Source of the DNA: an uncultured Cytophagaceae bacterium
GTDB taxonomy: Bacteria; Bacteroidota; Bacteroidia; Cytophagales; Spirosomataceae
NCBI GenBank assembly: GCA_903960725.1
Contig: CAJCBY010000409.1
Location: 1-26,854, forward strand
Reading direction: 5' to 3'
Length of the DNA: 26,854 nucleotides
Shown: piece after piece, positions 9,393-14,174 of the stretch
Layout of the letters: each line of letters opens with the position of its first letter
Numbering within the stretch: the first letter of the stretch is position 1
Position numbers and translations under genes: made by a program
The notes under the pieces: generated by a model
What the model was told of the DNA's origin: nothing
Database searches by the model: none
The model's input: the letters and a program-made list of their open reading frames with translations, nothing else

Positions 9393-10640
9393 ATGGCGTC
9401 GGTAGTAGAACAATTTGCTCGTACTCGTGCAGCAGCCTCGACTTTAGCAATGGCTAGTGGGGAGTCTAAAAATGCTGTTCTTCGTAGCATTGCGTCATTA
9501 ATTAGCCAAAATTCAGCTGAAATTTTACGTGAAAATCAAAAAGATTTAGATCGGATGGCAACAGATCATCCGATGCGTGATCGATTAAAATTAACCCAAG
9601 AAAGACTTCATGATTTAACCGAAAGTGTACTTTCGGTTACCCATCTTCCCGATCCGACAGGGCAAGTTTTATCGCATAGAACGCTTTCGAATGGTTTGAT
9701 ACTATCTAAAAAAACGGTACCGCTAGGGGTTGTGGGAGTCATTTTTGAGTCACGACCTAATGTTACTATTGATGTAGCAGCCTTATGTATTCGCTCTGGC
9801 AATGCGGTAGTCTTACGTGGCGGTTCGGATGCTTTGCACACGAATACTATTTTAGTGGAATTAATTCATCAGGCATTAGTTCAGAGCGGAATTTCAACGG
9901 ATGTAGTCTACTTAATGCCCACAGATCGGGAGTTAGTGACAACTTTGTTAACTGCTGTAAAGTACATTGATGTAATCATTCCTCGAGGATCAGAGGCTTT
10001 GATTCAGCGTGTTAGAAAAGAGTCTTTAGTGCCTACGATAGAAACGGGCGCTGGCGTTTGTCATACCTATGTGGCCGCTAATGCTGAAATTGATATGTCA
10101 GTTGCCATAGTGGTGAATGCCAAAGTCTCCAGGCCATCTGTCTGTAATTCATTAGATACAATTGTAGTTCACCAGTCCAAAGCAGCCGAATTTTTAGCGA
10201 AGCTTGTTGACCCATTTACGAACTATCATGTCAAGATCTATGCGGATGAAACATCGTATGCTATTTTAGCCTCCTTGTCTTACCCCTTTTTAGAAAAAGC
10301 AAAATTGGCTGATTTTGGACGGGAATTTCTAGATTTTGCCTGCTCGATCAAGGTTGTTAACGACTTTGAGGAAGCTCTTACTCATATTGCATCCTATTCT
10401 TCTAGGCATTCTGAAGCGATAGTGACTTCGGATGAAGTGGAAGCGTCCTATTTCCTTTCTGCAGTGGATGCTGCAGCCGTTTATTGGAACGCGTCTACAC
10501 GATTCACAGATGGAGGGGAATTTGGTTTAGGCGCTGAAATAGGTATTTCAACTCAAAAATTACACGCACGTGGTCCGTTTGCTTTAGAGAAATTAGTCAC
10601 AGAGAAATGGATTGGAATAGGGCAAGGTCAAACCCGTTAA
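9393..10640 (+). CDS. proA: Gamma-glutamyl phosphate reductase
   Basis: ProA reduces gamma-glutamyl phosphate to glutamate 5-semialdehyde with NADPH, the second step of proline synthesis. The 415-residue product belongs to the aldehyde dehydrogenase superfamily and has normal length. Visible family segments are GVVGVIFESRPNVT, SGNAVVLRGGSDA, VIIPRGSEALI, the catalytic Cys251 in SRPSVCNSLDT, and the C-terminal WNASTRFTDGGEFGLGAEIGIST. It starts one base after the CotH stop codon. The partner gene proB is not in this window, although proB-proA pairs are common. The last 4 bases overlap the end of dnaX on the opposite strand. Confidence 0.96.
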   Translation: MASVVEQFARTRAAASTLAMASGESKNAVLRSIASLISQNSAEILRENQKDLDRMATDHPMRDRLKLTQERLHDLTESVLSVTHLPDPTGQVLSHRTLSNGLILSKKTVPLGVVGVIFESRPNVTIDVAALCIRSGNAVVLRGGSDALHTNTILVELIHQALVQSGISTDVVYLMPTDRELVTTLLTAVKYIDVIIPRGSEALIQRVRKESLVPTIETGAGVCHTYVAANAEIDMSVAIVVNAKVSRPSVCNSLDTIVVHQSKAAEFLAKLVDPFTNYHVKIYADETSYAILASLSYPFLEKAKLADFGREFLDFACSIKVVNDFEEALTHIASYSSRHSEAIVTSDEVEASYFLSAVDAAAVYWNASTRFTDGGEFGLGAEIGISTQKLHARGPFALEKLVTEKWIGIGQGQTR

Positions 10641-12394
10641 AATTCATAATCTAATCCCATTCTTTGCTTCATTTCGGCCAGAATAGGGTGTTTTTGGGAA
10701 AGGAATTCATATTTATCCGATTGCGTATAAATCATTTTTTTATCGCTTACTTCCCCCTCAATTAGGTCTAAACTAAGATCAATTGAATCATTCTTTAGCT
10801 TTTCACGTAATTGAGTAATTAATTCTAATTTCAGAGAATCATTGAACTGCTGTATCTGAACTTCACCTTCTACCTTAATGTGAACAATGGAATCGACTAG
10901 ACTGATCTCACGATTCATCATCACGTACTTATTGATGAAATTAGCTTGCTTGAATCCTTGTGCAATCTGTGTCCAAACAAAATTTAGCTCCTCAAATGTA
11001 AAAGTCTCATTTTGCACTTTGCCTTGAGTGCTAGTCTGCTCGGAACTCTCTGATTGATTTGAGTGAGCAACTTTTTTCGCACTTCGCAACCCATGACTGG
11101 TGGGCCTCACGGCAGGCGTTTCCTCAATAGGTGTTTCTTCTATCACAGCGATAGGAGTCACAGGTACTGGGGCAGTCGAAGGAACGGGTGCCGCTTCTGT
11201 CACTGCAGTTGAAACCGCAGCCGGAGCTATCGGTTTAGGTTCAGGCTTTTTTCCGGCGCCACCCTCCGCCGTAGGTTGAGCCGAAGTGGGTTGGTAAACC
11301 GACGGCAAGTAATTTATTTTTAATAGGGTTAATTCCACATGTAGACGGGCATTCTTCGCTGCTTTGTAATGTATCTCGCATTGAGAGCACAGGTTCATAG
11401 CTGAAAGCAAGAACGAAGCCGACGTCTTCCCACATTGCGCTTGAAATTTAGCCCGATTCTCTTCGCTTAATTCCATTAAGGCAAGCGTCTTTGGATCTTT
11501 GGCAAATAACAAATTACGGAAATGCTCAGAAAGGCCTGAAATAAACTGCTGGCCATCAAAACCCTTGCGCATAATCTCGTCTAACAAAACGAGTGCCTGT
11601 GAATGGTCTTGATTCACGAAGTAATCCGTTAGCTGGAAGTAATAATCGCTATCTAAAATGTGCAAATTCTCTAATACACCAGCGTATTTCAACGAATTAT
11701 CCGTTGAGAATGTCACATTCAGGTCAAACATAGAAAGAGCGTCGCGAAGACCTCCATCAGCTTTGATTGAAATCAATTCTAAAGCAGCCGGCTCAGCTGT
11801 AATCCCTTCTTTCTCCGCAATGGAAGACAGGTGGGATGCCATATCCTTCCATTGAATTCGATTGAAGTCGAAGATTTGGCAACGAGAAAGAATGGTAGGT
11901 AAAATCTTATGTTTCTCCGTCGTCGCTAAAATGAATATGGCGTAGGATGGAGGCTCCTCTAACGTCTTTAAAAAAGCATTAAATGCGGATGCCGAAAGCA
12001 TATGAACCTCATCAATGATGTAAATCTTGTATTTCCCGCTTTGAGGTGGGTAACGAACTTGGTCGATGAGGTTACGAATATCATCTACGGAGTTATTCGA
12101 GGCAGCATCTAATTCATGAATCGTTAAGGAGGTATTTTCTTGGAAGGATTGGCAAGAGGCGCATTTACCGCAAGCTTCCCCATCGGATCCTAAATCAACA
12201 CAGTTTATTGTCTTCGCTAAAATACGTGCACAAGTAGTTTTACCTACTCCTCTAGGGCCACAGAAAAGAAATGCTTGAGCTAAGTGGTTGGACTTAATCG
12301 CATTCTTTAAGGTGGTGGTTATGTGACTTTGGCCTACCACTGAATCAAAGAGGGTAGGGCGGTATTTACGTGCTGAAACAACAAAATTTTCCAT
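10637..12394 (-). CDS. dnaX: DNA polymerase III subunit gamma/tau
   Basis: The clamp-loader ATPase of the replicative polymerase. The 585-residue product has Walker A GPRGVGKT (46-53), a zinc module (Cys65, Cys75, Cys78, Cys81), Walker B IIDEVHML (about 127-134), and the sensor 1/arginine finger stretch LATTEKHKILPTILSRCQ. A Pro/Ala/Thr-rich linker runs from about 365 to 435, followed by a C-terminal tau-like domain. An in-frame TTG two codons upstream is possible, but the ATG at 12394 gives the standard N-terminus (MENFVVSARKYRP). It has its own promoter three bases upstream. An A6 run near codons 440-441 is treated in the findings. Confidence 0.96.
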   Translation of the reverse strand: MENFVVSARKYRPTLFDSVVGQSHITTTLKNAIKSNHLAQAFLFCGPRGVGKTTCARILAKTINCVDLGSDGEACGKCASCQSFQENTSLTIHELDAASNNSVDDIRNLIDQVRYPPQSGKYKIYIIDEVHMLSASAFNAFLKTLEEPPSYAIFILATTEKHKILPTILSRCQIFDFNRIQWKDMASHLSSIAEKEGITAEPAALELISIKADGGLRDALSMFDLNVTFSTDNSLKYAGVLENLHILDSDYYFQLTDYFVNQDHSQALVLLDEIMRKGFDGQQFISGLSEHFRNLLFAKDPKTLALMELSEENRAKFQAQCGKTSASFLLSAMNLCSQCEIHYKAAKNARLHVELTLLKINYLPSVYQPTSAQPTAEGGAGKKPEPKPIAPAAVSTAVTEAAPVPSTAPVPVTPIAVIEETPIEETPAVRPTSHGLRSAKKVAHSNQSESSEQTSTQGKVQNETFTFEELNFVWTQIAQGFKQANFINKYVMMNREISLVDSIVHIKVEGEVQIQQFNDSLKLELITQLREKLKNDSIDLSLDLIEGEVSDKKMIYTQSDKYEFLSQKHPILAEMKQRMGLDYEF

Positions 12395-12397
12395 AAT

Positions 12398-12429
12398 CAA
12401 ATTTACCTTTTAAAGCCTTAATTCCCAAA
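12398..12429 (-). promoter_or_regulatory. dnaX promoter, TTTG-N20-TAAATTTG
   Basis: On the minus strand TTTG (12429-12426) is followed by a 20-base spacer and TAAATTTG (12405-12398). This agrees with the Bacteroidota two-part promoter (-33 TTG, -7 TAnnTTTG) in both sequence and spacing. It fits entirely within the 39-base gap before dnaX, and only ATT separates the -7 box from the ATG, so the start of transcription should fall at or next to the start codon. Confidence 0.7.
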
Positions 12430-12433
12430 TGCT

Positions 12434-13870
12434 CTACGGGATTCTAACGACAGCACTCACAGGGAAATGATCCGTTGGATATTTATTTCCCCAGGTTTCA
12501 CTATGAGTCGTATGCTGTAAAACGGATGGGCCATTTTTGACGAAAATATAATCAATATGTCTGCCATCTTGTTCTTTCACAAAGCCATTAAATGAACTAT
12601 ATGGCCCATAATGCCCATTTTTGCTTATTTTTTCTGCGTCAATCACGCGCTCGGGATTCTTCTGATCGACTAAAATTTGAATCGGTTCATCGTCTGGGGT
12701 AGCATTGAAATCCCCTGTTAAAATGGCGGGGGACTTGCCGGCAATTTCAGTGATTTTTCGTAGAACTAGCTTGGCACTTTCTCTTCGCGCCACTTTCCCT
12801 AAATGATCAAAATGGGTGTTAAACACATAGAATTTCTTCCCCGTTTTGATCTCTTGAAAGTGTCCCCAGGTTACCACCCGACGGCAAGCGGCATCCCAGC
12901 CAAAGCCAACTTTATCACAAGAGTCTGATAACCAAAAAGTACTTTCTTTGAGTAACTTAAATTTTGATTTACGGTACATTAAGGCAGAAAATTCGCCCTC
13001 TGCTTTGCCATCATCACGGCCTTTTCCAAACCACCCAAAACCAGGCAATTCTTTCTCTAAATCAGTTATTTGGTGTAGGTAAGCTTCTTGTAATCCAACA
13101 ATATCAGCCTCGTGGTAGCGAATCAATTCTCCACAGTGCTTCGCACGGTATTTCCACTGATTTAACCCATCTGAATCGGTATCTAAACGCACATTAAAGG
13201 TCATGGCTTTTAGTTGGGCAGAGGCCGCTGGAAATTGGGCTGATACCGCTGGACCAGCTAATAAAAGCACAAAACAGGTAAAGGCTTTCAAAATGTTCAT
13301 TACCTGTGGGAAAACGCGGTCGTTCTTCCCATTTTGAATGACAAAATCAGCCCCCCATAAATAATTCTTCGGTTTTGGCTGTAAATCAATCATTTGCATT
13401 GTTTCCATATAGCTCAAGTGACTTCGTTGTTGAATATGTTGAATTCGTTCGTTTAAAGGACAGTCGACCGTGATGATTTGGTCGATGTGTTCTGGCTTTG
13501 TACGTGGTGTGATCAGGGCGGATTCGTATAAACAAAAAGGGGCTTCTGGGGTATTTAATATCCATTCTGCCGCCTTAGATCGAACAGCGGGATGAATTAT
13601 GGCATTTAGCTGTGCGACGTCACCTGGGTATTTTTGAAGCAGGCCTTTTATCCAAGCTCGATTGTAGGATCCATCAGGATGGTAGGCTTTCGGACCAAAT
13701 TCGGCAATGATGGCTTCTTTCACCTGGGAGTCGTTCTCACAAATTTCGCGCGCTGCTGTGTCCGCTTCAAAAATAGGAATTCCAAGACACGAAAAAATCC
13801 GGCAAATGGTTGATTTGCCGGATCCTATTCCGCCTGTTATTCCGATGAAAGGTTTCAGGCCTATTTGCAT
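12434..13870 (-). CDS. coaE: Dephospho-CoA kinase fused in frame to an endonuclease/exonuclease/phosphatase protein
   Basis: One 478-codon frame holds two proteins. Residues 1-190 are CoaE, which phosphorylates dephospho-CoA in the last step of CoA synthesis: P-loop GGIGSGKST (13-21), EADTAAREI, LNAIIHPAVR and the typical end ADFVIQN...FPQV. Residues 191-478 look like a complete exported EEP-fold phosphatase or nuclease beginning with Met191 and a signal peptide (MNILKAFTCFVLLLAGPAVS). EEP sites present are FNVRLD (Asn226), GLQEA (Glu262), NTHFDH (351-356), LTGDFN (Asp387), HIDYIF and TDHFPV (Asp467, His468). Usual CoaE length is about 200, so the kinase should have ended near the signal peptide. 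A true fusion, an extra internal start, or a lost stop codon are all possible. It lies 4 bases after yajC. Confidence 0.85.
   Translation of the reverse strand: MQIGLKPFIGITGGIGSGKSTICRIFSCLGIPIFEADTAAREICENDSQVKEAIIAEFGPKAYHPDGSYNRAWIKGLLQKYPGDVAQLNAIIHPAVRSKAAEWILNTPEAPFCLYESALITPRTKPEHIDQIITVDCPLNERIQHIQQRSHLSYMETMQMIDLQPKPKNYLWGADFVIQNGKNDRVFPQVMNILKAFTCFVLLLAGPAVSAQFPAASAQLKAMTFNVRLDTDSDGLNQWKYRAKHCGELIRYHEADIVGLQEAYLHQITDLEKELPGFGWFGKGRDDGKAEGEFSALMYRKSKFKLLKESTFWLSDSCDKVGFGWDAACRRVVTWGHFQEIKTGKKFYVFNTHFDHLGKVARRESAKLVLRKITEIAGKSPAILTGDFNATPDDEPIQILVDQKNPERVIDAEKISKNGHYGPYSSFNGFVKEQDGRHIDYIFVKNGPSVLQHTTHSETWGNKYPTDHFPVSAVVRIP
13235..13300 (-). other. Internal start codon and signal peptide inside the coaE fusion
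   Basis: The ATG at 13300-13298 (codon 191 of the fused frame) begins a typical export signal: Lys195, a hydrophobic core and an AVSAQ cleavage region ending near codon 212. Starting here would give a 288-residue secreted EEP protein, the usual form of this family. The ATG sits within TAATG, so a TAA is present in the neighbouring frame but not in the CoaE frame. Confidence 0.6.
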
Positions 13871-13874
13871 TGAA

Positions 13875-14174
13875 TTACTCTTCTAAGCGAGAGGATGCGT
13901 CTTTAGAGATCGCTGTTTTCTCGAATACCATACGAACACCTTTGCTCGAATCCACTTCCACTACGATCGTTTTTTCGCGGATGCTTACCACGGTTCCGTG
14001 TGCTCCACCAATGGTCACCACTTTATCGCCCGTTTTTAATTCTTCAATGAATTTTTTCGCTTCTTTTGCTTTTTGCTGTTGTGGGCGAATCATGAAAAAA
14101 TAAAATACGACGAAAATACCTCCAAAAAGGATGATTTGCATGTAGGCAGGACTCTGTGCTTGTAATAATAACAT
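13875..14174 (-). CDS. yajC: Preprotein translocase subunit YajC
   Basis: YajC is a small inner-membrane partner of SecDF that assists Sec-dependent export. The 99-residue product has one N-terminal membrane segment (about residues 13-30, with ILFGGIFVVFYFFMI) followed by the diagnostic RPQQQKAKEAKKF and a cytoplasmic domain with LKTGDKVVTIGGAHGTVVSI. Length and layout are normal. It lies between the DUF1573 lipoprotein gene and coaE with 4-base gaps, in an order I know from other Bacteroidota, though a YbbR/CdaR-type gene often found beside it is absent here. Confidence 0.95.
   Translation of the reverse strand: MLLLQAQSPAYMQIILFGGIFVVFYFFMIRPQQQKAKEAKKFIEELKTGDKVVTIGGAHGTVVSIREKTIVVEVDSSKGVRMVFEKTAISKDASSRLEE

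What the first reader, a model, noticed from the sequence alone, without database searches (positions are those of the whole stretch)
12434..13870. CoaE joined in frame to a secreted EEP phosphatase that keeps its own start and signal peptide
The sequence shows one uninterrupted frame running from dephospho-CoA kinase straight into an endonuclease/exonuclease/phosphatase domain. The boundary contains Met191 and a good signal peptide. CoaE motifs are intact to the expected C-terminal PQV segment, and all EEP catalytic motifs are intact. A cytoplasmic kinase with an internal export signal makes little sense as a simple bifunctional enzyme. One message may therefore give two products: a membrane-anchored CoaE-EEP and, by internal initiation, free secreted EEP. 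If real it would couple CoA synthesis to an exported phosphodiesterase-like enzyme.
Basis: partly seen in the sequence, partly recalled or inferred. Interest (0 to 1): 0.75.

Follow-up and report, generated by a model that had tools for sequence, protein, structure and literature searches.

The report
CoA kinase fused to exported phosphatase
In a genus of freshwater bacteria, the gene for the last enzyme of coenzyme A synthesis is joined without a break to an exported phosphatase-like enzyme, so that one protein chain seems to serve both the inside and the outside of the cell, probably after being cut in two at the membrane.

Summary
The 478-aa minus-strand frame holds an intact CoaE and an intact EEP domain. 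It is no assembly artefact: the fusion runs full length in 28 of 38 Aquirufa genomes, partly (contig edge) in one more, and in G196 of another genus, 30 in all, including a single-contig genome and the isolate A. antheringensis. Among the other 183 family genomes no fused match is listed. The fused copy is the only CoaE found in 15 of 15 fused genomes checked. At least two separate deletions, with readable scars, later removed EEP plus its hydrophobic segment and kept CoaE.

Conserved instead are the open frame, a short hydrophobic run growing out of CoaE's last helix, and an A/G/S|Q site like that of stand-alone exported EEPs. Best reading: a cellular polyprotein with an internal signal peptide, cut into cytoplasmic CoaE and exported EEP. 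Export and cut are inferred.

The parts
12434..13870 (-). whole fused gene, 478 codons plus stop
13328..13849 (-). CoaE (dephospho-CoA kinase) domain, residues 8-181; P-loop GGIGSGKS at 13-20
   Evidence: P-loop invariant but for I/M at residue 15 in 29 aligned chains
13244..13315 (-). residues 186-209: one predicted helix that carries CoaE's C-terminal PQV stretch straight into the hydrophobic run
   Evidence: AlphaFold2 model
13298..13300 (-).
13238..13285 (-). uncharged hydrophobic run, residues 196-211 (h-region of a presumed internal signal peptide)
   Evidence: comparable run in 30 of 30 fused genes
13214..13240 (-). two possible signal peptidase I sites: A211|Q212 and A218|Q219
   Evidence: pattern only; A/G/S|Q 4-5 residues before the EEP core in 30 of 30
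12467..13204 (-). EEP (Exo_endo_phos) domain, residues 223-468
13875..14174 (-). upstream neighbour, yajC-like (name recalled from the sequence, not from a call); 4 bases before the fused gene
   Evidence: same order in the relatives
10637..12400 (-). downstream neighbour, dnaX-like (name recalled); directly behind CoaE in the genomes that lost EEP

Best explanation
A genus-wide cellular polyprotein. Shown: behind the single coaE, an EEP gene with its hydrophobic leader is fused in frame onto CoaE's last helix in 30 genomes of Aquirufa and genus g52; the fused EEPs form one clade; two lineages later lost EEP by deletion. Inferred: the ribosome makes one chain; CoaE folds in the cytoplasm; its C-terminal helix with its K/R serves as the n-region of an internal signal peptide; the Sec machinery passes the EEP part outward; signal peptidase I cuts at the A/G/S|Q site. 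Products: CoaE with a short hydrophobic tail in the inner membrane (perhaps trimmed free later) and an exported EEP, probably a sugar-phosphate phosphatase or a phosphodiesterase. The join itself may be neutral or mildly useful (one promoter, 1:1 output), since EEP has been lost twice while CoaE was kept.
For: Fusion in 30 genomes without a stop; six linker lengths in 29 genes, all in frame; dN/dS medians 0.094 CoaE, 0.18 joint, 0.038 EEP (15, 14 and 13 usable of 15 pairs); hydrophobic run plus small-residue|Q site in 30 of 30, as at the end of the N-terminal leaders of stand-alone EEPs (17 of 21 by the same rule); 12 of 30 lack any start codon before the run and G196 has none up to the EEP core; helix 186-209 continuous in the model; deletions in G001/G004/G009 and in G008/G024 removed EEP and the run together and left CoaE at a normal length; one CoaE per genome in 19 of 19; signal peptidase and M50 protease families present in 5 of 5 genomes.
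Against: No protein-level data. The signal peptide was judged by pattern, not by a trained predictor. The -3 residue is not always small (L in G019, M in G032, V in several). 9 of 30 have an ATG before the run and those of G023, G031 and G035, as well as one just inside the run of G059, have good start context. The model's domain placement is uncertain (pTM 0.58). CoaE-EEP adjacency before fusion was not found in the listed rows, so the fusion step itself is not seen.
Confidence: 0.68

Rival explanations
1. Uncut membrane enzyme: the hydrophobic run is a signal anchor; CoaE stays inside and EEP outside on one lasting 53 kDa chain.
For: One open frame in 30 genomes and a continuous helix at the joint fit this as well as the cut version does.
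Against: The run is short for an anchor (11-18 uncharged residues) and is followed by a small residue and Q in 30 of 30, as in stand-alone EEP leaders.
Confidence: 0.17
2. Two products by internal initiation: a full chain plus EEP started at Met191 or its counterparts.
For: ATG before the run in 9 of 30 fused genes; good start context in G023, G031, G035 and for one ATG just inside the run in G059.
Against: No start codon near the joint in 12 of 30; Met191 itself has poor context and is confined to one clade, with TTG in G015; it would not explain why stops and frame shifts are absent from the joint.
Confidence: 0.13
3. Sequencing or assembly error that removed a stop codon.
For: The window's own genome is a draft of 519 contigs, 84% complete.
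Against: The same open frame in 29 other genomes at 58-90% identity or, for G027, 62%, including one on a single contig and a named isolate record.
Confidence: 0.01

Closest known systems
Hepatitis C virus core-E1 junction (PMC5402940; search listing, abstract and passages seen)
   Same: A cytosolic protein ends in the signal peptide of the next, exported protein; signal peptidase separates them and leaves the first anchored by the signal peptide.
   Different: Viral and eukaryotic; proven there, inferred here; the first protein here is a metabolic enzyme that is also found unfused in relatives.
Staphylococcal LtaS cut by signal peptidase SpsB (PMC10865820; search listing and passages seen)
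   Same: A bacterial signal peptidase releases an extracellular enzyme domain from a larger membrane protein.
   Different: The N-terminal part of LtaS is a multi-span membrane domain, not a soluble cytoplasmic enzyme.
Bradyrhizobium FbcH cytochrome b/c1 precursor (recalled only; one search listed no paper that holds the term fbcH)
   Same: One bacterial gene, two proteins, separated at an internal signal peptide (recalled).
   Different: Both products are membrane respiratory proteins; no soluble cytoplasmic enzyme.
Stand-alone exported EEPs of Bacteroidota: PDB 3g6s, 3mpr, and 4c1r Bt3783 mannosyl-6-phosphatase
   Same: Sequence (E 1.5e-58 to 4e-47) and fold (TM-score 0.87-0.95 by target length) of the EEP half.
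   Different: These are separate chains; the substrate of the fused EEP is unknown.
Other CoaE fusions (COASY: CoaE with PPAT; mycobacterial CoaE with UPF0157; PDB 2f6r and the paper PMC2765170 seen only as listings; details recalled)
   Same: CoaE joined to a second domain.
   Different: The second domain there is cytoplasmic (recalled); here it lies behind a hydrophobic export-like segment.

Membership tests
Dephospho-CoA kinase (CoaE) | Family profile over its curated cut-off | tested here: met
   PF01121 119.8 bits (cut-off 27) and TIGR00152 88.5 bits (65.55)
Dephospho-CoA kinase (CoaE) | Intact P-loop and catalytic Asp (roles recalled) | tested here: met
   GG(I/M)GSGKS and D37 in 29 of 29 aligned fused chains
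Dephospho-CoA kinase (CoaE) | Kinase activity | not testable with these tools
   needs an assay or complementation
EEP (Exo_endo_phos) superfamily | Family profile over its curated cut-off, and fold | tested here: met
   PF03372 68.3 bits (24.5); Foldseek 3g6s E 1e-32
EEP (Exo_endo_phos) superfamily | Conserved catalytic motifs (roles recalled) | tested here: met
   TFN, Q-E262, H353, GDFN, D467-H468 invariant in 29 of 29 aligned fused chains
Mannosyl-6-phosphatase (Bt3783-like) | Activity on mannose-6-phosphate | not testable with these tools
   similarity only
Protein cut by signal peptidase I | Basic n-side, uncharged run, small residue at -1 | tested here: met
   30 of 30 by pattern; -3 residue larger than usual in some
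Protein cut by signal peptidase I | Observed cleavage | not testable with these tools
   needs N-terminal proteomics
Polyprotein with an internal signal peptide (HCV core-E1-like way of working) | Conserved unbroken frame through the signal segment | tested here: met
Two-product gene by internal initiation | Start codon before the signal segment conserved across the family | tested here: not met
   ATG in 9 of 30; no start codon in 12 of 30

The most novel reading that the evidence does not exclude
A bacterial cell makes its only dephospho-CoA kinase as the cytosolic head of an exported protein. The kinase's last helix is the n-region of the signal peptide, and signal peptidase plus an intramembrane protease free it, as at the HCV core-E1 junction. 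Supply and location of the kinase would then depend on the Sec pathway and follow, one to one, the output of an exported phosphate-releasing enzyme.
Probability: 0.33. Interest if true: 0.8.

Novelty: new variant of a known kind. Interest (0 to 1): 0.6.

Why it matters
Cellular proteins that join a soluble cytoplasmic enzyme to an exported enzyme through an internal signal peptide are, as far as I recall, rare. This one is old (CoaE halves of fused genes down to 44% identity to the window's), sits on the only CoaE copy found in the genomes checked, and has been undone at least twice by deletions whose scars can be read. It offers a natural series (never fused, fused, fused then lost) for asking how a signal peptide works behind a folded domain of about 190 residues and whether CoaE tolerates or uses a membrane tail. 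It is also a warning for annotation: the export signal of this EEP lies in mid-protein, where tools that look only at N-termini would miss it.

Tried and rejected
Assembly artefact: rejected by the relatives. Internal start as the general mechanism: rejected on absence of start codons and on context, not excluded for single clades; the start matrix uses mechanically chosen ATG starts (some may be misplaced: the nusB-like gene has a median of -5.75), separates only moderately (medians -1.37 for gene starts, -3.59 for internal ATGs), and its internal set includes ATGs of the fused genes themselves.

Two separate genes at this place: in the 38 Aquirufa genomes, none seen; G014 and G027 are cut by contig ends and G011, G029, G030 have no match, so these five cannot tell. 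Fusion elsewhere: in the family search (222 genomes) only Aquirufa and G196 among the listed rows (list cut at about E 1e-66, where a fusion should score better than EEP alone); order sample of 390, none beyond 8 Aquirufa and G196 in the listed rows (list also cut); phylum sample of 395 at E<=1e-75, the window and 5 genomes that match in the EEP half only (a weak distant fusion could miss this threshold). CoaE and EEP side by side but unfused in other genera: I compared listed rows by eye, both lists cut; the nearest pair I noticed was G108, about 13 kb apart. A two-gene precursor was therefore not found and not fully excluded.

EEP moved elsewhere in CoaE-only genomes: G001 and G004 have 2 EEP-family matches against 3 in each of the 14 fused genomes checked that are at least 90% complete (the window's draft has 4), so no replacement was seen; G008 and G024 are too incomplete to tell. 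G027: two CoaE ends on contigs C46 and C29 overlap by 222 bases at 96% identity, perhaps two alleles; undecided. Tree: rooting on G196 is an assumption; its label CoaE-only for G014 only reflects a contig end; G034 (fused) falls beside G004 (CoaE only, support 95) although G001, G004 and G009 share one deletion junction, so exchange of the locus or tree error is likely there. Literature on a CoaE-EEP fusion: searches listed nothing of the kind; the library lacks most subscription journals. A search for work on the Bt3783 phosphatase found nothing of use.

Full report
What was checked. The window is a whole contig (G000:C409) of a draft genome. Its relatives by this gene include the isolate Aquirufa antheringensis, 89% identical over the whole chain, and I take the genus to be Aquirufa on that ground. 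The frame 12434-13870 (minus) is open for 478 codons, with CoaE at residues 8-181 and Exo_endo_phos at 223-468, both over their cut-offs.

Is it real in nature? Of the 38 genomes of the genus held, 28 carry the fusion full length without a stop, G027 carries it from residue 115 on at a contig edge, 5 have CoaE only (G001, G004, G008, G009, G024), G014 is cut by a contig end inside CoaE, and 3 (G011, G029, G030; 81-90% complete) show no match. In the family search of 222 genomes the only further full-length match listed is G196, the one genome of genus g52, 60% identical. No other full-length match is listed in a 390-genome sample of the order, and none appears in a 395-genome sample of the phylum at E<=1e-75. 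In a CoaE search of the family, the listed unfused CoaE frames are at most 296 codons, too short to hold an EEP (list cut short).

Origin and loss. The gene order nusB-ytxH-DUF1573-yajC-coaE(-EEP)-dnaX (names recalled from the sequences) is shared by the window, the CoaE-only genomes as far as their contigs reach, and G196. In a tree of 30 fused EEP halves and 21 stand-alone EEPs of the family, fused and stand-alone ones are separated by a branch with support 100; under midpoint rooting the nearest stand-alone EEPs are those of G148 and G167, 67% and 61% identical to the window's. On a tree of eight neighbour proteins, rooted by assumption on G196, CoaE-only genomes are nested among fused ones. 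Their DNA shows how. In G001, G004 and G009 CoaE ends in ITGLT or IAGLA with a new TAG, followed by a remnant of the EEP gene's last bases (CATCTACCCTAA or a near variant), which in the fused G034 still encode the end of EEP. In G008 and G024 CoaE runs into the old spacer behind EEP and stops there after three or four codons. The junctions differ, so there were at least two deletions. Both leave CoaE 12-14 residues beyond and including the P of its PQ motif, within the 12-19 residues of the ten unfused CoaEs read from other genera, and both removed the hydrophobic run together with EEP. This suggests that the run serves EEP, not CoaE.

The joint. In the fused chains the CoaE tail, with its K/R, leads into an uncharged run of 11-18 residues that begins at the 9th to 14th residue from the P of PQ; a small residue (A, G or S) followed by Q lies 4-5 residues before the EEP core in 30 of 30, and in G000, G007, G020 and G022 a second such site lies 7 residues earlier. 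The stand-alone EEPs begin with an ordinary N-terminal leader; the same rule finds the site in 17 of 21. Of the four misses my motif search had misplaced the core; three of them show A or G followed by Q just beyond the cut segment and one (G242) has PQ. The -3 residue of the fused chains is not always small (L in G019, M in G032, V in others). The AlphaFold2 model gives one helix from 186 to 209, low confidence at 208-214, and two well-folded domains whose relative placement is uncertain (mean pLDDT 88, pTM 0.58).

Does EEP have its own start? Of the 7 fused members of the window's clade, 6 have ATG at this place and G015 has TTG; the other clades have other codons there. An ATG anywhere from 3 codons before PQ to the start of the run occurs in 9 of 30. 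From 8 codons before PQ to 3 codons into the run, 12 of 30 have no ATG, GTG or TTG, and G196 has none up to the EEP core itself. A position matrix from 269 gene starts puts the window's Met191 at the 0th percentile (rounded) of gene starts scored with their own gene held out, and at the 5th percentile of 2154 internal ATGs; its five clade mates with ATG lie at the 1st-6th percentile of gene starts. Against this, the ATGs of G023, G031 and G035, and one just inside the run of G059, score at the 62nd-96th percentile of gene starts. The matrix separates only moderately. Internal starts may thus occur in some species but cannot explain the conserved arrangement.

Constraint. Over 15 close pairs the median dN/dS is 0.094 for CoaE (15 usable), 0.18 for the joint (14) and 0.038 for EEP (13). 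Six linker lengths occur in 29 genes, all in frame. If EEP were made apart from CoaE, stops and frame shifts in the joint would do little harm; none is seen in 30 genomes. The P-loop (I or M at residue 15), D37 of CoaE, and the motifs TFN, Q-E, H353, GDFN and DH of EEP are invariant in the 29 chains aligned (their roles are recalled).

What each half does. One CoaE and no second was found in 19 of 19 genomes searched with the Pfam model, 15 fused and 4 CoaE-only, so a fused cell should get its dephospho-CoA kinase from this chain. EEP is closest by sequence and fold to 3g6s, 3mpr and 4c1r, the last titled B. thetaiotaomicron mannosyl-6-phosphatase Bt3783. Of six stand-alone loci from which I scanned nine neighbours, three have glycan genes beside EEP (TonB-plug plus SusD in G167; GH31 and alginate lyase in G127; GH20 in G171), while the scanned neighbours in G148, G060 and G149 were OmpA, a purine synthesis enzyme and an HGSNAT-like protein. 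An exported enzyme for sugar phosphates or phosphodiesters is the likeliest role. I have no sign that its substrate is CoA, and a link between the two activities is not needed to explain the join.

Mechanism. I take the chain to be a polyprotein: CoaE inside, internal signal peptide, EEP outside, cut by signal peptidase I. A signal peptidase and an M50 protease that might trim the leftover tail are encoded in 5 of 5 genomes checked. The same layout is described for hepatitis C core-E1 (PMC5402940, abstract and passages), and release of an extracellular enzyme from a larger membrane protein by signal peptidase for LtaS (PMC10865820, passages). The export, the cut and the fate of the CoaE tail are inferred here, not shown. 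The main rival is an uncut chain lying across the membrane.

Verdict. Observation confirmed, interpretation partly supported; a new variant of a known kind with an unusual and testable mechanism.

Noticed in passing
L054:9330-9530 (G196): The dnaX-like gene behind the fusion reads as two ORFs (382 and 218 aa) meeting at A AAA AAG followed at once by TAA, with a hairpin right behind (-14 kcal/mol, z -2.3, 5 of 200 shuffles as good): it looks like a programmed -1 frameshift of the E. coli dnaX type (motif recalled). In the Aquirufa loci the gene is one frame.
   Followed up: partly
L049 and L050 (G027, contigs C46 and C29): Two contig ends carry overlapping CoaE pieces, 96% identical over 222 bases; perhaps two alleles of this locus in one population.
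   Followed up: partly
G034 versus G004 (tree): A fused genome groups with a CoaE-only genome (support 95) inside a set that shares one deletion junction; hints at exchange of the locus between species.
   Followed up: no
G117:C111 and G507:C11: Distant EEP relatives lie in much longer open frames (709 and 1092 codons), so this EEP may be joined to other partners elsewhere.
   Followed up: no
L040 (CAMCXW010000010.1): The record is titled Spirosoma fluviale, but its fused gene is 70% identical to the window's and it matches G012, held here as the window's genus; the label looks wrong.
   Followed up: no
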